A stretch of 43,402 bases of DNA from Candidatus Scalindua sp. SCAELEC01 (GTDB taxonomy: Bacteria; Planctomycetota; Brocadiia; Brocadiales; Scalinduaceae). How positions within the stretch are numbered: the stretch's first letter is position 1; the number at the start of each line of letters is the position of its first letter. This document shows, piece by piece, positions 9,767 to 42,955 of this stretch. A model generated the notes under the pieces. That model was not told the DNA's origin. It searched no databases and worked only from the letters and a program-made list of their open reading frames with translations. Position numbers and translations under genes: made by a program. The stretch lies in NCBI GenBank assembly GCA_004282745.1, contig SHMT01000037.1, positions 1 to 43,402 on the forward strand, read 5' to 3'.

Positions 9767-11012
9767 TGCAGTCATAATCGGTGCCGGACCGGGGGGGTAT
9801 TCGTGCGCAACGGAGATAGCAAGTCTGGGTGGTAGAGCTCTCATCATTGAAAGAGAGAGAGTCGGCGGAACGTGTACGAACTACGGCTGTATCCCTACAA
9901 AGGCCTTAATCAGTTCAGCAGGCCTCATCGAAGACCTTGCACACTCTTCGAGAAAGGGGATTGATGCATCCTATACAATCAATTTCGAGAAGATGATGAA
10001 AAGGAAAAATCGTATTGTTAACACTCTCGTCAGAGGAATCAAATTAACTATACACAATAAGGGAATAGATTTTCTCCAGGGGGAAGCGCGTATCATTTCC
10101 GAAAACAGGGTTCGGGTAGGCAGTCAGGAAATTGAGGCGAGGAACATCGTTATTGCCACGGGAAGCGAACCAATCAAGATCGCTTCCGGAGAGAACATTT
10201 TGACGAGTAGGGAAATCCTTGAACTCACGTCTATCCCATCCAAACTAGTCATCATTGGAGGGGGAGTAATAGGGTTTGAATTTGCGATTATTTTTCAAAC
10301 CCTTGGCAGTTGTGTTACCATAATCGAGGCGATGGAGACGATACTCCCGGATCTTGACCACGATCTCTCTGCTGAAATTGAGAGAATTGCACAACGAAAA
10401 GGTATTACCATACTGGTGGAGAAAAAGGCAGAGATTAACCATGGAATTTCTTTGGATGGTAAAGAGATTCCCTTTGACAAAGTCCTTGTCGCTGTCGGAA
10501 GGAGACCACATCTGCCGGAATTGAGTGGTATCGATTATGGTACGGTAAACGGGAAGATGCAGACAGAGATTGATACGATATATGCAGTCGGTGATGTAAC
10601 AGGCAAGAATCAATTGGCACACGTGGCAACGATGCAGGGTATCGTTGCTGCACATAATATCATGGGGCAAGAGAGAATAATGAATTACGCCTGCATACCC
10701 AATTGTATCTACACCCTACCGGAGATTGCGTCCGTTGGTGTATCAGAGACAGAAGGTCACGACGTATATAGGGCTGACTATGCAGCAAACGCCAGGGCCA
10801 GGTGCAGTGACAAATTAGATGGCTTTATGAAGATAGTGGTTGATAAAAAGAGCAGACAGATAAAAGGGGTGCACATTATCGGTGAAAATGCAACCGACCT
10901 AATTGCAACAGCCGTTACAATTATAGAAAAAAAGGTGACACGGGAAGACGTATTAAATATGATATTTCCTCATCCTACGTATAGTGAACTTTTCATTGAA
11001 GCACTCAAATAG
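9759..11012 (+). CDS. lpdA: Dihydrolipoyl dehydrogenase (L protein)
   Basis: The flavoprotein reoxidises dihydrolipoyl-GcvH with NAD+. It has the FAD-binding GAGPGGYS at 8-15 and the redox disulfide C39/C44 in GGTCTNYGC. The NAD-binding motif VIIGGGVIGFEF follows, then AVGDVTG, and the C-terminal catalytic histidine in FPHPTYSE. At 417 residues it is shorter than the usual 460-475. Part of this is loop loss and part is the end, which stops soon after HPTYSELFIEALK. The stop TAG is the first triplet of a B repeat (TAGTGGCTG), so the last residues of the ancestral protein may have been replaced by that insertion. All catalytic residues remain. Confidence 0.93.
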   Translation: MYDAVIIGAGPGGYSCATEIASLGGRALIIERERVGGTCTNYGCIPTKALISSAGLIEDLAHSSRKGIDASYTINFEKMMKRKNRIVNTLVRGIKLTIHNKGIDFLQGEARIISENRVRVGSQEIEARNIVIATGSEPIKIASGENILTSREILELTSIPSKLVIIGGGVIGFEFAIIFQTLGSCVTIIEAMETILPDLDHDLSAEIERIAQRKGITILVEKKAEINHGISLDGKEIPFDKVLVAVGRRPHLPELSGIDYGTVNGKMQTEIDTIYAVGDVTGKNQLAHVATMQGIVAAHNIMGQERIMNYACIPNCIYTLPEIASVGVSETEGHDVYRADYAANARARCSDKLDGFMKIVVDKKSRQIKGVHIIGENATDLIATAVTIIEKKVTREDVLNMIFPHPTYSELFIEALK

Positions 11013-11319
11013 TGGCTGACCCAACTACCCACCTACTGCGTTGCCATAAAAATTCCGTAATCCTCACGTACTATAGGGTTCTGAAAAAAAGAACTCTACA
11101 TTCTTGCATCTCATTTTCAGGTCATCTTTGTCCGACCTTCATTCGCCGAATCCTCAACGTAGCTCTGGCTACGCTTGTGGTCCAGCTCAATCAGCTCGAC
11201 CAAATCTTACCTAAACCTGAGCGCAATAAATTGTAAAATTATTATTTTCAGAACCCTTAGCACGCTCCGGTTCTGAATTTTTTACGCGCCTTGTATCTGG
11301 GCAGTTGGGTCAGCCACTA
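11010..11319. repeat. Element B copy with an A element nested inside
   Basis: The ends TAGTGGCTGACCCAACT (11010-11026) and its exact reverse complement (11303-11319) form a perfect 17-bp terminal inverted repeat, and similarity extends a few bases further inward. The inner flanks (AATTCCGTAATCCTCACGTA on the left, GCACGCTCCGGTTCTGAATT on the right) match the middle of the B copy at 20527. The central 190 bases are an A element (11071-11260). B therefore arrived first and A inserted into it later. Confidence 0.85.
11071..11260. mobile_element. Repeat element A, copy 1 (divergent), inside element B
   Basis: This is a roughly 190-bp element with ends TATAGGGTTCTGAAAA and TTTTCAGAACCCTTAG. The interior aligns with the other two full A copies (16696-16884 and 36436-36624) over segments such as GCATCTCATTTTCAGG, GTAGCTCTGGCTACG, GTGGTCCAGCTCAATCAG and CGACCAAATCT. 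It contains no plausible coding region, so it is non-autonomous. It is the most diverged of the full copies. Confidence 0.8.
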
Positions 11320-12702: not shown

Positions 12703-13027
12703 TCCACCCACACATTCACGCTATTGTTTCTGATGGTCTTTTTAGGGAAACTGGCTCATTCTACGTCATGCCTGATGTCGATTTAAAACCACTTGAAGAT
12801 ATCTTCCGCGCAAGTGTATTCAAGATGCTGAAAGACGAAGGTAAAATAGATGACGACGTATTCAACAAACTCATGAATTGGAGACATTCCGGTTTCAGTG
12901 TACACAACGGTTCAAGAGTTGCAAGGGACGATGAAAAGGGAAAGGAAGCCATCTCACAATATATTATCCGCAATACCTTCTCTCTTGAAAAGCTAACATA
13001 TAATGAAGAGACCAATACCGTTATTTA
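12703..13027 (+). pseudogene. IS91-like (Y2/HUH) transposase fragment 1
   Basis: The reading frame gives FHPHIHAIVSDGLF, in which HPHIH is the metal-binding HUH motif of IS91-family transposases, followed by MPDVDLKPLEDIFRASVF and IIRNTFSLEKLTYNEE. It lacks the N-terminus (replaced by a REP-like palindrome) and the catalytic tyrosine region. After 13027 the sequence diverges into unrelated AT-rich DNA although the frame stays open to 13193. The part 12746-13027 is duplicated at 14758-15038. Confidence 0.75.
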
Positions 13028-13127
13028 TGTTCAAATTTGCAAATCTTCAATTTATCTTCCACTTTTTTACCAAAGCAGAGCAATTCAGAGCATCATTTTT
13101 AAAAAATATTTGAATTTTGGTAATAAT

Positions 13128-14626: not shown

Positions 14627-14763
14627 ATGGACTCTATGAAAGACAAGTTTCCCAAAATACCGGAAAGGATAGCCGGGCTCGGTGAGTTGGCATATAACCT
14701 GTGTTGGAGCTGGAATCCGGCTAGCCAGGATGCTTTTTAAATCTCTGGACAAGGAACGGAAAC
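14627..14763 (+). pseudogene. glgP: Truncated, frameshifted alpha-glucan phosphorylase start
   Basis: A good ribosome site (GAGAGG) and ATG at 14627 begin a frame reading FPKIPERIAGLGELAYNLCW and then SWNPA, the N-terminal domain of bacterial/archaeal glycogen phosphorylase of the DUF3417 type. It stops at 14740, but a shifted frame continues MLFKSLDKER, as expected for the family. At about 14757 the sequence joins the second transposase fragment. More than 90% of the gene is therefore missing. Confidence 0.8.
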
Positions 14764-15258
14764 GGGAACATTCTACGTCATGCCTGATGTCGATTTAAAA
14801 CCACTTGAAGATATCTTCCGCGCAAGTGTATTCAAGATGCTGAAAGACGAAGGTAAAATAGATGACGACGTAATCAACAAACTCATGAATTGGAGACATT
14901 CTGGCTTTAGTGTACATAATGGAGTAAGAGTTGCAAGAGACGATGTAAAGGGTAAGGAAGCCGTCTCACAATATATCATACGCAATACCTTCTCTCTTGA
15001 AAAGTTAACATATAATGAAGAGAATAATACCGTCATTTATCAATCAAGGATGACACCAGGTAAAAACAAGAGGAATTCATAGCGGCTATTACACAACATA
15101 TCCCGGAAAAATCGTTTCAAATGGTCCGTTACTACGGTTGGTATTCAAACAAGTTTCGCGGACTACGCAAGAAACAGGGAATTCCCAAACCAGGAGAATC
15201 TCTGGAACAGGAACCTGTTAATATAGTGATTATACTGGTAATCCAGGATTTGCGTTAA
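14758..15258 (+). pseudogene. IS91-like transposase fragment 2 (C-terminal part, frameshifted)
   Basis: This part duplicates 12746-13027, with the first 110 or so bases nearly identical and the rest roughly 90% alike. It then continues further than copy 1. Near 15070 the frame shifts, and the downstream frame reads EEFIAAITQHIPEKSFQMVR, YYGWYSNKFRG and LRKKQGIPKPGES. These are the IS91 C-terminal segment with the catalytic tyrosines. It ends at a stop at 15256-15258. Broken by truncation and frameshift, it cannot make an active transposase. Confidence 0.8.
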
Positions 15259-15653: not shown

Positions 15654-16037
15654 TCATAGTTTTGTGCTATTTGTTTTTATCCAATCAGCGATTTCCTGCT
15701 CACCCATATTCCCCTCAGCAATTTTCATGACAAACGAGTACTTATCACTTTGAGAGGCATGAATATCATATCCATTCATCCTTAGAATGAGGCGCATAGA
15801 CTCAAAACCAACACGTTTGTTTCCGTCAACAAAAGGATGATTGTTAATAAGAGAATACCCTAACACCGCTGTTTTGAGAAATAAATCCGGATAAAAGTCT
15901 TGTCCACCAAATGATGATTGTGGCCTATAGACTGCAGATTCCATTAGCCCTTTATCACGAACTCCATGAGAACCTCCCGTTGCCCCAATAATCTGCTTAT
16001 GAAGATACATAACTTGTTTGGGATAAAGATAATTCAT
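15654..16037 (-). CDS. doc: Doc-type (death-on-curing) Fic-fold toxin
   Basis: Doc proteins phosphorylate and inactivate EF-Tu. The 127-residue protein has the Fic/Doc active-site motif HPFVDGNKR at 67-75 and the typical opening YLYPKQVMYLHKQIIGATGGSHGVRD, with the conserved GLMESAV segment after it. Doc itself has HxFxxANKR, and the GNKR form here is common in chromosomal relatives. The gene starts three bases after the stop of a ribbon-helix-helix gene and ends just before a terminator, making a two-gene toxin-antitoxin operon. The sequence is intact, so the toxin should be active. Confidence 0.88.
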   Translation of the reverse strand: MNYLYPKQVMYLHKQIIGATGGSHGVRDKGLMESAVYRPQSSFGGQDFYPDLFLKTAVLGYSLINNHPFVDGNKRVGFESMRLILRMNGYDIHASQSDKYSFVMKIAEGNMGEQEIADWIKTNSTKL

Positions 16038-16040
16038 GAA

Positions 16041-16256
16041 CTATGCCAATTTTTTAAGCAGCTCCTTATCCTCACGAATCAGCAAATCTATCTCCTTTTT
16101 CAGATCTGAAGTAATAATATCCTCCTTATGTTGCCGGATGACCAACCCGATCCCCTCCCGAATAAGAGCGGACTTTGGAATATGCGTTTCCTTCGAAACT
16201 GCATCAAGAATTTTCAACTGTTCTTCTTCAATTTTTAAACTGATGGATTTCATCAT
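16041..16256 (-). CDS. Ribbon-helix-helix antitoxin of the Doc pair
   Basis: The 71-residue product starts MMKSISLKIEEEQLKILDAV, a typical ribbon-helix-helix DNA-binding opening, followed by PKSALIREGIGLVI and a charged tail ending DKELLKKLA. I chose the ATG at 16256 because GGAGGT is seven bases upstream (complement of 16263-16268); a longer frame to 16325 would run through the promoter. It should neutralise Doc and repress the operon by binding the palindrome at 16280-16305. Doc partners are more often Phd-type, so an RHH partner is a less common pairing. Confidence 0.82.
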   Translation of the reverse strand: MMKSISLKIEEEQLKILDAVSKETHIPKSALIREGIGLVIRQHKEDIITSDLKKEIDLLIREDKELLKKLA

Positions 16257-16262
16257 CTTTTT

Positions 16263-16305
16263 ACCTCCGTAATAAATATACTTAACAATACAAGTATTGT
16301 CAAGT
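16263..16305 (-). promoter_or_regulatory. Promoter and palindromic operator of the RHH-doc operon
   Basis: On the minus strand TTGACA (16303-16298) and TATATT (16280-16275) are separated by exactly 17 bases. A palindrome with 12-bp arms, ACTTAACAATAC/GTATTGTCAAGT (11 of 12 paired), covers 16280-16305, between and over the two boxes. Binding of the RHH protein there would block RNA polymerase. The ribosome site GGAGGT follows. Confidence 0.78.
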
Positions 16306-16334
16306 ATTTCGATGGTTGCTTCCATGCACCTGGT

Positions 16335-16733
16335 TTATATTTTAATATTTTTCATTAACTCGTATGCAATATTGTTACCTACAAGACGCATTATACTCTC
16401 TTCTGCACTACCAAAACTTAATAAATTAATGCTGCCATACCAGACAATTTTTTGATCAATAATCGCAAATTTCTGATGAATGTTTGATCTTAAAATCACC
16501 GTGATCCCCATATTCTTTAACATATCAAAAATCTGTTCTAAAACCGCTTTCCTTTTATCTTTAAAATCTTGAGATGGTCTTGTTACAACAGTAATTTCTA
16601 CCTGTTTATTGACTATATTATTAAAATATTGAAGCGTCTGTATAACTCTCTTATTGGTAACAAACGGGCTGACAATTACAATTTCTCTTGATGCGCTTAG
16701 GGCCCAGGAAAGAATAACTTGTCGTTCTCGCAT
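16335..16733 (-). pseudogene. Severed PLD-nuclease C-terminal domain of the TOTE gene
   Basis: Residues 13-132 form a phospholipase-D-type nuclease half with one HKD motif: H86, K88 and D93 in HQKFAIID, then GSIN at 100-103. The preceding SASREIVIVSPFVTNKR is the usual strand and loop opening of this domain. The first 12 residues (MRERQVILSWAL) are encoded by repeat A, so the apparent start codon belongs to the element and not to the original gene. No ribosome site is visible. Removing element A with one CTAAG copy joins this frame directly to the helicase gene upstream. The domain may be expressed as a separate polypeptide, but it is best read as the broken end of one gene. Confidence 0.75.
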
Positions 16734-16884
16734 CTCATTTTCAGGCCACCTTTGGCCGCTCTTCAGTCGCAGTATCCTCGCTGTAGCTCGGGCTACGCCT
16801 GTGGTCCTGCTCGATCAGATCGACCAAATCTGACCTAAAACTGAGCGCGATAAAACAACAAATTATTCATTCCTGGGCCCTTAG
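16696..16884. mobile_element. Repeat element A, copy 2, inserted in the TOTE gene
   Basis: This 189-bp sequence is bounded by CTTAG at both ends (16696-16700 and 16880-16884). Just inside are inverted ends GGCCCAGGAAAGAATAA and TTATTCATTCCTGGGCC. The interior contains palindromic segments such as CTGTAGCTCGGGCTACG and CTCGATCAGATCGA but no coding frame. It is the inverted, closely similar counterpart of 36436-36624. The CTTAG pair is best explained as a target duplication, because removing one copy plus the element restores the reading frame of the interrupted gene. Confidence 0.88.
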
Positions 16885-19416
16885 TATATCATTTCGGTAA
16901 ATTGGGAGGAAACTGTTCTTGTCAAAGATAATGTCTGAAGATTCTGTTGCAATATTTTCTCCTTTTGCCTTATAGCCAATAGAGGCATATCCATTAAGCC
17001 TTTTGCCATACATTTTCTCCAACATTCTTACATGGGTATCAACATAATCATATACTTGTACTTCATTTTTACTCTCATACAATCTATGCAGTCGACCGGC
17101 ATATTGCTGCAATGTGCCTTTCCATGAGATTGGCATTGTCAGAAATAGTGTATCAAGTCGAGGCTCATCAAACCCCTCACCAACAAATTTGCCTGTAGCG
17201 ACTAACGTTAACTGCTTATCTGTCGGTATAGCTGATATTTTGTTTACTATCTCTCTGGTTTTCTTAGCTCCCATACCACCCATCAAGGTTATTACCTCCG
17301 GAATCCTTTCATTTAACTTCTTTGCGAGTAGCATAACATGGGCTGTCCTCTCAGATATTACTAGGGAATTTCTGCCATTCTCATAGCTATGTAAAACATC
17401 GCTTACTATCAATTGATTACGTATTTCGTCAACAGTGATTTCAGCATATAACTCTTGAATAGTTAATTCTTTACTGTTTTCATCAATCGGCATTCTAAAA
17501 CTGGTAAATCTTGGGATAATATAATGATCAAACGGCCTTTTTTCAGCCTGTTTTTTCGCATCAACCCTGAATCTCTCAACTCCGCAATGCATAAATATGA
17601 TTGGATGATGGCCATCCTTTCTTGTTGGAGTTGCGGTCAATCCATAAACAAATTTTGCGTTAACCTTTTTAAGGATCTGTTCAAAACTAAACGCGGGAAC
17701 ATGATGACACTCATCGATAATAACCATCCCATAATTTTTTACACACTCCTTCACCTCACCCGCATTAATTAAAGATTGCATAATTGCAACATCAATAATA
17801 GAGCTTAAACTATCCTTTCCTGCCCCTATCTGCCCGATTATTCCCTGTACCTTCCTCCTTCCACGCCTTTTCTCCTGAACCGGCAACTTTTCGTTAATCC
17901 TTAAAAATTCAGACAATCTGGCAATCCATTGTAAAAGGAGCTGCTGCCTATGTACCAATATAAGAGTATTTCTCCTTCTCGCGGCAATCAGGTTAGCTGC
18001 CACAACGGTTTTTCCAAAGGCGGTGGTTGCTGATAATACCCCAGTATCATGAGGCAGCAGTTCCTCTAATACTTCTTGCTGTTCTTTTCTAAGGCTCCCA
18101 TTAAACTCAACGTCAATGATTCTGCCACAATTAGTTTCATCAGTCCAGGTAACATCAATTTTACATTTACTTAACAAGTTGTTAATCTCTTCTTCACAAC
18201 CTCTGGGCAGGCACAAATACCTTTCACTCTCTTCAGAACATGAGATGATCCTCGGTTTATTGTAAGTTGGCATTCGCATAGCCTGCGCCTTATAAAAGTC
18301 GGGATTACTAAAAGCAGCTAACCGCTTTAACATATTTAAAGCCATTTGAGAAAATCCTTTTTTTGGAATATATACCATGTTGGACTTCACGACTCTAACT
18401 GTTTTTGGTAAATCTTGCTTCCCCAAACTAACTCTAGTAGTTGCCCATGGTCTCAGGGTCTCGTCATCATCTTTTCTCAATTCACCTAATTCATTGCCTT
18501 TACATAAACGGGTTATCAAAACACCTAAATTGTCTTCAGAAAGTTTACCGATTGTGCCTAAATAAGTCCACTGATCAGCATAAGGCTTAAAATCTTTATC
18601 AATAAAAACAGTGTTGCCGTTTTTCCTTGCAGCCATCTGAAGCGGCAGCGCTATCAGATTTCCAAGGCCGCCTTTTGGCATAGTATCCTGATTGGGAAAA
18701 AGTCTGTCGTATGATTTGAACTTGATTTCGTGTCTCTTGCTCATGGAACAGGTAAGCAATGCTGTACCAAATTTCCTGGCTAAAGCTGCAGATATTTGAT
18801 TCTCAAAGAAAAACCAGAAGTGAGCTCCGTTACCTGACATTGAACGTTCTATTGCATAAGGGATTTTAAATTCAGCGCACACTTTGCGCAATATTGAAAC
18901 ATCTTTCTGCCAACCATTATCATCAAAATCGATAGCCAAAAAATAACACATTTCATCAATGCACATTGGATATATGCCAACTACAATATTTCCTCTAAGA
19001 TGGTCTTCCACAACCTTTTCGTTGAATTCTGCATATAATTTTTGCAAACATTCAGAACATCTAACTTTAGGTTTATAGCATACTCCGGGTTCCCATTCAT
19101 TCAAACAAGCAGGTGGATACCCTGACTTTCCTGATTTATTCTGCCACCGTTTGGCGAACACATCATCTCTTCCCCTGAATAGAGAGAGAAACAGGTTGAT
19201 CTTATCCCTGTTTTCAGAACCGTTATTGATGCTGAGGTTTAAATCCTTGCTGCTCTTGTATTGATATGAAGGACTCCCTGTGTTACTTTTACCAGTAACA
19301 TCCCTCCGTGGCTTGGAAATAACAAACTGTGTCTTTAGCCTTTTGATTTCAGCTTTCAAACGACTATTTTCATTAAGCAGAGACTGGTATTTTACATATA
19401 ATTCCTCAAAATCCAT
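16867..19416 (-). CDS. TOTE-type AEP primase and superfamily II helicase (C-terminus interrupted)
   Basis: The 849-residue protein starts with a short coiled coil (about 1-30), then a zinc-knuckle-like cluster (C104, C113, C120, C123) and an archaeo-eukaryotic primase domain with AIDFDD at 161-166 and SGNGAHFW at 194-201. A superfamily II helicase follows: ATTAFGKT (463-470), DECHH (568-572), TATPTRKDG (594-602), VGEGFDEP (745-752) and QQYAGRLHR (770-778). This primase-helicase arrangement is that of TOTE conflict systems, predicted to act against mobile DNA. The family normally continues into a PLD nuclease. Here the last four residues (RAQE) and the stop come from repeat A, and the nuclease is left as a separate frame (16335-16733). 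The rejoined protein would have 965 residues. Confidence 0.85.
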   Translation of the reverse strand: MDFEELYVKYQSLLNENSRLKAEIKRLKTQFVISKPRRDVTGKSNTGSPSYQYKSSKDLNLSINNGSENRDKINLFLSLFRGRDDVFAKRWQNKSGKSGYPPACLNEWEPGVCYKPKVRCSECLQKLYAEFNEKVVEDHLRGNIVVGIYPMCIDEMCYFLAIDFDDNGWQKDVSILRKVCAEFKIPYAIERSMSGNGAHFWFFFENQISAALARKFGTALLTCSMSKRHEIKFKSYDRLFPNQDTMPKGGLGNLIALPLQMAARKNGNTVFIDKDFKPYADQWTYLGTIGKLSEDNLGVLITRLCKGNELGELRKDDDETLRPWATTRVSLGKQDLPKTVRVVKSNMVYIPKKGFSQMALNMLKRLAAFSNPDFYKAQAMRMPTYNKPRIISCSEESERYLCLPRGCEEEINNLLSKCKIDVTWTDETNCGRIIDVEFNGSLRKEQQEVLEELLPHDTGVLSATTAFGKTVVAANLIAARRRNTLILVHRQQLLLQWIARLSEFLRINEKLPVQEKRRGRRKVQGIIGQIGAGKDSLSSIIDVAIMQSLINAGEVKECVKNYGMVIIDECHHVPAFSFEQILKKVNAKFVYGLTATPTRKDGHHPIIFMHCGVERFRVDAKKQAEKRPFDHYIIPRFTSFRMPIDENSKELTIQELYAEITVDEIRNQLIVSDVLHSYENGRNSLVISERTAHVMLLAKKLNERIPEVITLMGGMGAKKTREIVNKISAIPTDKQLTLVATGKFVGEGFDEPRLDTLFLTMPISWKGTLQQYAGRLHRLYESKNEVQVYDYVDTHVRMLEKMYGKRLNGYASIGYKAKGENIATESSDIIFDKNSFLPIYRNDILRAQE

Positions 19417-19424
19417 AATGTAAT

Positions 19425-19453
19425 ATTGTACTATCGTATTATGGAAAATTCAA
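19425..19453 (-). promoter_or_regulatory. Possible promoter of the TOTE gene, implying a leaderless message
   Basis: TTGAAT (19453-19448) and TACAAT (19430-19425) are spaced 17 bases apart. The start codon ATG at 19416 is only about nine bases beyond the -10 box, and no ribosome site exists. Either the message is leaderless or the match is fortuitous. Confidence 0.5.
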
Positions 19454-19497: not shown

Positions 19498-19523
19498 AAG
19501 TTATTCTTTCCTGGGCCCTAAGG
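19498..19523. repeat. One end of an A element (fragment)
   Basis: The sequence AGTTATTCTTTCCTGGGCCC, then TAAG, is identical to the end of the A copy in the TOTE gene. The opposite end is missing. It borders the group II intron-like remnant. Confidence 0.7.
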
Positions 19524-34710: not shown

Positions 34711-35919
34711 TTATCCTACTGACTCTCCTTTGCTCATGAGCTTCGGTGTGTATATACAGTATGGTTCTTCATCCATATAATCCCCGGTGTCATAAAACGC
34801 ACGGGCCCTACACCCTTCACACACCTTTTTATATTCGCATTCGCCACACTTCCCTCCAAGCAGATCGGGATCTCTGAGTTTGGCAAATACTGGAGAATCC
34901 TTCCAAATATCTTTAAACTTCTGCTTCTTGATGTGCCCGGCTTCTACAGGGAGGTATCCACAGGGAAAAACCTCTCCCTTGTGAGAGACAAAGCAGACTC
35001 CGGTTCCCGCTAGACACCCCTTGGTCATTGCAGCCATTCCATGTGTTTTTGGTGTAATTTTGATACCCTCTTCTTTTGCACGTTCGCGCATTATTCTGAA
35101 ATAGTGAGGTGAACACGTCGCCTTTGTCTGGATAACGGCATCTTTGGACAAATCATAGAAGAGGTTGAGGAGCTCTTCATACCGTTCAGGCGCCAGCATC
35201 TGATCATCAGCAATTTCTACTCCACAGCCAACGGGTACCAGCATAAATATGTGAATAGCTACCGCACCAAGTTTAACAGCAATATTATAGAGGTCTTCTA
35301 GTTGGTCTTCATTATGCTTTGCAATTGTGCAGTTGATCTGCATACTCATACCTGCATCTTTCAGATTATTGAAACCTTCAATGGCCTGATTGTAAGAGCC
35401 TTTCAACTTTCTGAAATTATCATGCGTTTCTGCATCAGCACCGTCTAAGCTGATAGAAACCCTCGAAACCCCGGCATCAACGATTTTTCTTGCCATCTCT
35501 TTATCAACCAAAGTGCCGTTCGTAGCCAAAGCTACCGTTAGTCCTTTGCTTACGGCGTGTTTGGCAATATCAAATATATCGGGACGAAAAAGTGGTTCTC
35601 CCCCGCTTAAGACAAGGATCGGATTGCCCGCGTCAGCTATAGCATCAACGAGCTCGAAGGACTCCTTTGTTGTCAAATCGTCATTGGCCAGCTGGGTACT
35701 GACGTCTAACCTTCTACAGTGAATACATTCCAGATTACAACCCGCAGTCGTTTCCCAGAAGACAAGCCGAAGCTGATTTTTCATATTCTTCATATACTGA
35801 TGGGCAACCTTGCCATGCCCATGATCTTTTATTTGTGAGTAAACTTCTTTTATCGTTCCTTCAGGCATACCCTCTGGCATACCAACAGGATCTGAATCCT
35901 TTCCATGAAAATCCTTCAT
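34711..35919 (-). CDS. ahbD: Radical SAM/SPASM enzyme, AhbD-like (heme b synthase type)
   Basis: The 402-residue protein has the radical SAM triad C61, C65 and C68 (CNLECIHC) and a C-terminal SPASM-type cysteine cluster (GCLAGTGVCFVSHKGEVFPC, CGECEYKKVCEGC, EEPYC). These C-terminal segments look most like AhbD, which decarboxylates Fe-coproporphyrin III to heme b in the siroheme route; NirJ and AhbC are close relatives and possible alternatives. GGGGGAG precedes the ATG at 35919. It is adjacent to AMMECR1/MEMO genes but is not the PFL-activase-like partner of that system. Other heme genes are not in the window, so the role rests on sequence alone. Confidence 0.65.
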   Translation of the reverse strand: MKDFHGKDSDPVGMPEGMPEGTIKEVYSQIKDHGHGKVAHQYMKNMKNQLRLVFWETTAGCNLECIHCRRLDVSTQLANDDLTTKESFELVDAIADAGNPILVLSGGEPLFRPDIFDIAKHAVSKGLTVALATNGTLVDKEMARKIVDAGVSRVSISLDGADAETHDNFRKLKGSYNQAIEGFNNLKDAGMSMQINCTIAKHNEDQLEDLYNIAVKLGAVAIHIFMLVPVGCGVEIADDQMLAPERYEELLNLFYDLSKDAVIQTKATCSPHYFRIMRERAKEEGIKITPKTHGMAAMTKGCLAGTGVCFVSHKGEVFPCGYLPVEAGHIKKQKFKDIWKDSPVFAKLRDPDLLGGKCGECEYKKVCEGCRARAFYDTGDYMDEEPYCIYTPKLMSKGESVG

Positions 35920-36164
35920 ACTTGCTCCCCCAGTAGTCTATAATATTGATAAGATGTGCCAAATTGTTTGCGTTATGCAAGCCAACTTTGCACTGAAATT
36001 GTAATTTTAGACAATCTCAACGATTCTACCCTTATTTTACATAAATTCAAATACAAAAATGTTATCAATCCTGCAGAAAGTACAAAATGGATCCGGATCC
36101 TCGACAGTGTGGCTTATTATCAAATGTTTAATAAAAGGTGTGTTATATCGACAACGTGCATAAC
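35920..36164. other. Intergenic region upstream of the radical SAM gene
   Basis: About 245 AT-rich bases without a gene on either strand. It must contain the promoter of the minus-strand radical SAM gene. A B element begins at 36165. Confidence 0.5.
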
Positions 36165-36341: not shown

Positions 36342-36440
36342 TATACCCATTGCAAAATGGTTTTAGGGATTTCTGGGCCGGAGTTTACTTGAAATTTTGA
36401 TTTTTCGATTGAACAAAACCAGAGGCTTAGTAATACTAAG
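36342..36440. repeat. Element C, partial copy interrupted by element A
   Basis: It begins TATACCCATTGCAAAATGGT and includes TTTTGATTTTTCGATTGAAC and AGAGGCTTAGTAATACTAAG. It corresponds, in inverse orientation, to 22065-22169. It stops at CTAAG, where the A element starts. Confidence 0.85.
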
Positions 36441-36624
36441 GGTTCAGGAAAAAATAACTTGTTGTTTTATAGCGCTCAGTTTTAGATCAGATTTGGTCGA
36501 TCTGATCGAGCAGGACCGCAGGCGTAGCCTGAGCTACAGCGAGGATACTGCGAGTGAAGAGTGGCCGAAGGTGACCTGAAAATGAGATGCAAGAACGACA
36601 AGTTATTCTTTCCTGGACCCTAAG
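36436..36624. mobile_element. Repeat element A, copy 3, at the end of element C
   Basis: This 189-bp copy matches the TOTE-gene copy in inverted orientation with few changes. It has CTAAG at both ends (36436-36440 and 36620-36624) and inner ends GGTTCAGGAAAAAATAA and TTATTCTTTCCTGGACC. Element C elsewhere (near 22077-22090) has a single CTAAG at the matching place, which serves as an unoccupied site. Confidence 0.88.
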
Positions 36625-42820: not shown

Positions 42821-42955
42821 CTATTGTGAGCTTAGGGTGCAGGAAAAATAGCTTGTTATTCTTTCCTGAACCCTTAGTATCCTTCCAGCATCAGACGGAG
42901 CGGTTTGTTCTGGAGCTGGCTTTTTGCAATTTAAACATTCACACGTAGAACCCAT
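42821..42955 (-). CDS. Tiny Cys-rich protein with an in-frame mini-A insertion
   Basis: From the ATG at 42955 the frame reads MGSTCECLNCKKPAPEQTAP, then SDAGRIL, then 14 residues encoded by the mini-A element (RVQERITSYFSCTL), then SSQ and stop. AGGGA is nine bases upstream. Without the element the protein would be 30 residues and end SDAGRILSSQ. The CxCxxC group could bind a metal. No family is recognised. The frame is also open upstream to 43003. The reality of the gene rests on the ribosome site, the cysteine pattern and the frame-preserving insertion. Confidence 0.5.
   Translation of the reverse strand: MGSTCECLNCKKPAPEQTAPSDAGRILRVQERITSYFSCTLSSQ
42831..42877. mobile_element. Mini-A element with CTTAG repeats
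   Basis: Forty-seven bases: CTTAG, GGTGCAGGAAAAATA, a 5-base centre, TTATTCTTTCCTGAACC, CTTAG. These are the two ends of element A with the interior deleted. The insertion, counting one CTTAG, is 42 bases or 14 codons. Confidence 0.85.

What the first reader, a model, noticed from the sequence alone, without database searches (positions are those of the whole stretch)
16335..19416. A TOTE-type primase-helicase-nuclease gene split by a small repeat; taking out the repeat restores one 965-codon frame
The helicase frame ends RNDIL then RAQE-stop, the last four residues coming from element A. The PLD-nuclease frame begins with 12 residues from the other end of A and continues SASREIVIVSP. If A and one of its two flanking CTAAG copies are removed, the codons become ATA CTA AGC GCA TCA, joining NDIL to SASREI in frame with no stop. 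Primase, helicase and PLD nuclease in one protein is the layout known for TOTE conflict systems. This is a defence-like gene inactivated, or turned into a two-subunit system, by a non-autonomous element.
Basis: partly seen in the sequence, partly recalled or inferred. Interest (0 to 1): 0.9.

Follow-up and report, generated by a model that had tools for sequence, protein, structure and literature searches.

The report
Small jumping repeat splits defence-like gene
A 179-base mobile repeat with dozens of copies in this anammox-type bacterium has landed, probably recently, inside a three-enzyme gene (primase, helicase, nuclease) that relatives keep whole, cutting off the nuclease; the event is real, but of a familiar kind.

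Summary
A MITE-like element (16701-16879, 179 bp) flanked by a perfect 5-bp target duplication (CTTAG, + strand) interrupts a minus-strand gene. Without the element and one duplicate the frame is open for 965 codons. Related Brocadiales carry the same gene uninterrupted (66-86% identity), and nearly all close homologues in 80 named loci continue in frame into the PLD domain at this point. The element has at least 40 copies in the genome; of 39 examined, this is the only one in a long recognisable gene, with one other possible gene split. Both halves are unique in the genome, keep their catalytic motifs and show no relaxed selection, so the insertion is probably recent. Most likely: insertional truncation leaving a primase-helicase without its nuclease. 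A separately translated PLD is possible: the element supplies an ATG and a helix-like start, but both lie in a -104 kcal/mol RNA hairpin. The 'TOTE system' label is only partly right: the primase matches Pfam AEP-TOTE, but the gene stands alone (no TBP gene in 59 Brocadiales genomes, no conserved partner in 81 loci). More distant relatives lack PLD or carry a DUF559 nuclease instead, so a nuclease-less form may still work.

The parts
16867..19416 (-). AEP-TOTE primase + SF2 (XPB/RadD-like) helicase ORF, 849 aa; last 4 residues (RAQE) come from the target duplication and the element
   Evidence: (PF22548 1.2e-100, PF04851 1.1e-23)
16701..16879 (.). MITE-like element, 179 bp, imperfect palindrome with terminal inverted repeats GGCCCAGGAAAGAATAA..., at least 40 copies in the genome
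16696..16700 (+). target-site duplication CTTAG, left copy
16880..16884 (+). target-site duplication CTTAG, right copy
16335..16733 (-). PLD (single HKD) nuclease ORF, 132 aa; first 12 residues encoded by the element and the duplication; native PLD part is 16335-16700
   Evidence: (PF13091 3.1e-11)
19425..19453 (-). sigma-70-like promoter TTGAAT-17-TACAAT upstream of the helicase ORF, conserved in two related genomes
19501..19522 (-). solitary terminal-repeat end of the same element family, about 85 bp upstream of the gene
36433..36624 (-). second full copy of the element in the window (intergenic)
42831..42877 (.). 47-nt short form of the element (two terminal repeats back to back)

Best explanation
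A 179-bp non-autonomous transposable element (MITE) with a preference for CTNAG targets inserted, duplicating CTTAG, into a stand-alone gene for a fused primase (AEP), SF2 helicase and PLD nuclease. Shown: the element, its multicopy status, the 5-bp duplication, and uninterrupted orthologues whose reading frame crosses the same point. Inferred: the insertion is recent; transcription from the retained upstream promoter gives an 849-residue primase-helicase truncated inside the nuclease domain; the PLD part is not made, or is made poorly, because its only standard start codon lies in the 3' arm of the element's strong RNA hairpin. The nuclease function is therefore lost or uncoupled, while the truncated product resembles naturally PLD-less relatives and may keep some activity.
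For: Unbroken orthologues with 978-1002-codon open frames and 66-86% identity up to residue 847/848; PLD in frame in nearly all of 80 named loci, 62 of them with intact ORFs of at least 900 aa. Perfect target duplication; 179-bp length shared by 27 of 29 aligned copies. At least 40 long copies and 262 terminal-repeat ends in the genome. No relaxed selection in the PLD part (13 synonymous, 6 nonsynonymous changes on the window branch), as expected if the break is young. Both halves are single-copy. Insert RNA hairpin -103.8 kcal/mol, z -12. PLD-less relatives.
Against: No expression data. Both halves keep their catalytic motifs (Walker A ATTAFGKT and the others seen: DECH, QYAGRLHR, HxK...SxN) and show no decay, so continued function cannot be excluded. 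This copy differs from the all-copy consensus at 11 of 179 positions and from its nearest copy at 6, so it need not be very young.
Confidence: 0.75

Rival explanations
1. The insertion turned one protein into a working two-subunit system: the element supplies a start codon and an N-terminal helix for the PLD nuclease, translated from the same message or from a promoter near the element, and the PLD re-associates with the primase-helicase.
For: The PLD ORF has an ATG (16733), an AGGTGG 12 nt upstream, and 12 element-encoded residues. AlphaFold2 predicts residues 2-12 as a helix in the place of the native first PLD helix (native helix 840-849 ends exactly at the insertion point), overall pLDDT 83. 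No relaxed selection.
Against: Start codon and Shine-Dalgarno-like site are buried in a very stable hairpin. The helicase stop is about 130 nt upstream of the start. A young insertion gives the same selection signal. The helix prediction is helped by an alignment of homologues that have a helix there (first block pLDDT 69).
Confidence: 0.14
2. The contig is a repeat-mediated misassembly, and the gene is intact in the organism.
For: The repeat has many near-identical copies, and the genome is a draft in 104 contigs.
Against: A chimeric join between unrelated loci would not give both a perfect target duplication and an exactly restored frame with a homologue-matched junction.
Confidence: 0.03
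3. The element is skipped at RNA or translation level (bypassing over the hairpin), so that the full protein is still made.
For: Hairpin-forming insert between duplicated CTAAG sites; both parts under constraint.
Against: No second clear long-gene case among 39 copies that would suggest tolerance of genic insertions. The element is far longer than known bypassed segments (general knowledge).
Confidence: 0.02

Closest known systems
Prokaryotic MITEs such as Chunjie of Geobacter uraniireducens and Correia elements (review PMC10969869)
   Same: Short, non-coding, terminal inverted repeats, target duplication, dozens of mostly intergenic copies of several sizes, one copy disrupting a gene
   Different: The parent transposase family was not identified; target CTNAG
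Pfam PF22548 AEP-TOTE primase / TOTE conflict systems (TPR, OB, TBP, Effector; PMC12458937)
   Same: The primase domain matches PF22548 at 336 bits
   Different: Stand-alone gene; no TBP in the genome or its relatives, no conserved neighbours
CRISPR-associated primase-polymerases (solved as 7nqd, 7nqf)
   Same: Primase related by sequence (E 3.8e-9)
   Different: Below the NCBIfam cut-off for PrimPol_Msp (94 of 200 bits); CRISPR linkage not tested
Mokosh MkoC and other helicase-PLD defence proteins
   Same: The PLD domain is closest to MkoC in PADLOC (8.6e-17)
   Different: The helicase half did not match MkoC, and there is an added primase
NucT / Zucchini single-HKD PLD nucleases
   Same: Fold match of the PLD model (6ehi, E 1.2e-7)
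   Different: Here normally fused to a primase-helicase

Membership tests
MITE (miniature inverted-repeat transposable element) | terminal inverted repeats | tested here: met
   GGCCCAGGAAAGAATAA / TTATTCATTCCTGGGCC
MITE (miniature inverted-repeat transposable element) | target-site duplication | tested here: met
   CTTAG/CTTAG here; identical 5-bp flanks in 21 of 39 copies examined
MITE (miniature inverted-repeat transposable element) | short, non-coding, multicopy | tested here: met
   179 bp, at least 40 copies, no long frame in the consensus
MITE (miniature inverted-repeat transposable element) | autonomous partner with the same ends | tested here: inconclusive
   No transposase beside the ends in six loci examined; not all 262 ends were examined
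TOTE conflict system | AEP-TOTE primase domain | tested here: met
   PF22548 1.2e-100
TOTE conflict system | TBP gene | tested here: not met
   PF00352 absent from G000 and 58 Brocadiales genomes; found in 4 archaeal controls
TOTE conflict system | conserved operon with a TPR-CSD/OB partner | tested here: not met
   No neighbour family in more than 11 of 81 loci; none of the ten neighbour proteins typed is TPR/CSD
Fused AEP-helicase-PLD protein family | one reading frame through primase, helicase and PLD in homologues | tested here: met
Single-HKD PLD nuclease | HxK...S-N motif and PLD fold | tested here: met
   HQKFAIIDQKIVWYGSIN; NucT/Zucchini fold
Anti-phage defence system | protects against phage | not testable with these tools
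   Only indirect: patchy distribution and TA/Fic/AbiEi-type neighbours in some loci

The most novel reading that the evidence does not exclude
The element acted as an instant gene splitter: it stopped the primase-helicase, supplied a start codon and a replacement first helix for the PLD nuclease, and left a functional two-subunit enzyme from a formerly fused one.
Probability: 0.1. Interest if true: 0.6.

Novelty: new member of a known kind. Interest (0 to 1): 0.32.

Why it matters
It is a clean case of a small mobile repeat cutting the nuclease off a widespread three-enzyme protein for which the searches made here found no experimental study. The comparison shows that the C-terminal nuclease of this family is a swappable part (PLD, DUF559 or none), which makes the role of the nuclease testable.

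Tried and rejected
No Rfam match in the window. Autonomous partner transposase: none next to the ends examined. Apparent split homologues L065, L109 and L131 turned out to be open across the junction (an artefact of a stop elsewhere in the match); only L115 has a real deletion in PLD. Functional split and bypass considered and given low probability. Pfam scan of the second candidate split gene (L028 joined frame) gave nothing. The TOTE review (Aravind 2022) is not held, so its own description of effector layouts could not be checked; literature searches found no paper on this fused protein. The full-length structure model has low pTM (0.47), so it was used only for secondary structure at the junction.

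Full report
Observation. The minus strand carries an 849-codon ORF (16867-19416) with an AEP-TOTE primase domain (residues 71-297, E 1.2e-100) and an SF2 helicase (ResIII/DEAD, Helicase_C), followed by a 132-codon ORF (16335-16733) with a PLD domain. Between them lies 16701-16879, a 179-bp element bounded by CTTAG on both sides. Joining the flanks with one CTTAG gives 965 codons with no stop, through NDILSASREI.

Relatives. In five other Brocadiales genomes the gene is uninterrupted, with matches to residues 1-847/848 at 66-86% identity and open frames of 978-1002 codons; a sixth, partial copy (L037) also continues into PLD. In 80 named loci from many phyla nearly every locus that reaches the end of the helicase runs in frame into a PLD domain with a nearly constant junction; 62 have an intact ORF of at least 900 aa. 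So the fused form is ancestral for this clade.

The element. It has at least 40 long copies in the genome and 262 terminal-repeat ends at up to 3 mismatches against 0 for the reversed control, including 45-48-nt short forms. Most copies have 5-bp flanks of the type CTWAG, identical on both sides in 21 of 39. Of 39 copies tested by joining flanks, only the present one lies in a long gene (622 aa of joined frame within the fetched stretch); L028 (201 aa) is a second possible case, with flanks that do not match. Diverged relatives of the element occur in other genomes of the family and order. No transposase was found beside the ends examined. It is a MITE by structure; the mobilising family is unknown.

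Age and selection. The copy differs at 6 of 179 positions from its nearest copy and at 11 from the consensus. Pairwise omega for the PLD part between window and G015 is 0.18, as between intact genes (0.14-0.22), and the window branch has 13 synonymous and 6 nonsynonymous polarised changes in PLD. That is no sign of decay, but the test has little power if the insertion is recent.

What is made. A sigma-70-like promoter (TTGAAT-17-TACAAT) upstream of the gene is conserved in the window, G015 and G006 although the sequence beyond it is not; such matches are common by chance, and the support is the conservation. The transcript would carry the element as a hairpin of -103.8 kcal/mol. The helicase frame stops within 15 nt of the element's edge. 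The only ATG/GTG/TTG start for the PLD frame is the ATG at 16733, with AGGTGG 12 nt upstream, both paired in the hairpin. The native first PLD helix (840-849 in L061) ends exactly at the insertion point; AlphaFold2 predicts that the element-encoded residues 2-12 form a helix in its place. This makes a separate PLD thinkable, not likely.

What the protein is. The helicase is XPB/RadD-like and the primase is related to CRISPR-associated primase-polymerases by sequence. The PLD model matches NucT and Zucchini, single-HKD enzymes that work as dimers (general knowledge). The gene is patchy: AEP-TOTE in 39 of 294 Planctomycetota genomes, with different neighbours in related genomes, and the family tree does not follow phyla cleanly. 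Typed neighbours include DUF4143 ATPases, Fic, AbiEi, HipA, PhdYefM/ParE and PIN proteins in minorities of loci, an accessory-gene setting; no enrichment test was run. TOTE systems are defined as TPR, OB, TBP and Effector; TBP is absent from all 59 genomes searched, so this is an AEP-TOTE-domain protein outside a TOTE operon. PF00352 may miss very diverged TBP domains.

Modularity. Among twelve more distant relatives examined in Planctomycetota, nine end after the helicase (one of them with an internal deletion), two carry a DUF559 nuclease, and one is cut by a contig end. The truncated product in the window therefore resembles a natural form and may keep activity without PLD.

Verdict. A real, well-supported MITE insertion in an accessory gene; most likely a recent truncation. 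Interest is moderate to low. The swappable nuclease of this family is the more useful lead.

Noticed in passing
L028 (G000:C39, about 35888-36070): Another copy of the element may split a gene: joining the flanks gives a 201-codon frame with no Pfam match; its flanking 5-mers differ.
   Followed up: partly
window 19501-19522: Solitary terminal-repeat end of the same family just upstream of the interrupted gene, inverted relative to the end at 16696.
   Followed up: partly
window 11010-11319: A diverged copy (11074-11260, 78-79%) lies inside a second repeat with 27-nt inverted ends (11010-11036 / 11293-11319): one element nested in another.
   Followed up: no
window 12746-13028 and 14758-15040: Direct repeat of 283 nt at 92%; the first lies in an ORF with a Y2_Tnp (PF04986) match (7.3e-6).
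   Followed up: partly
window 15654-16325 (-): Ribbon-helix-helix antitoxin-like plus Doc/Fic toxin-like pair directly downstream, with its own promoter-like site (16303-16275).
   Followed up: partly
L221, L224: AEP-TOTE/helicase proteins with a C-terminal DUF559 nuclease instead of PLD, in other Planctomycetota.
   Followed up: partly
G000, for example C71:19251-19298, C50:70293-70340: Many 45-48-nt short forms made of two terminal repeats back to back.
   Followed up: no
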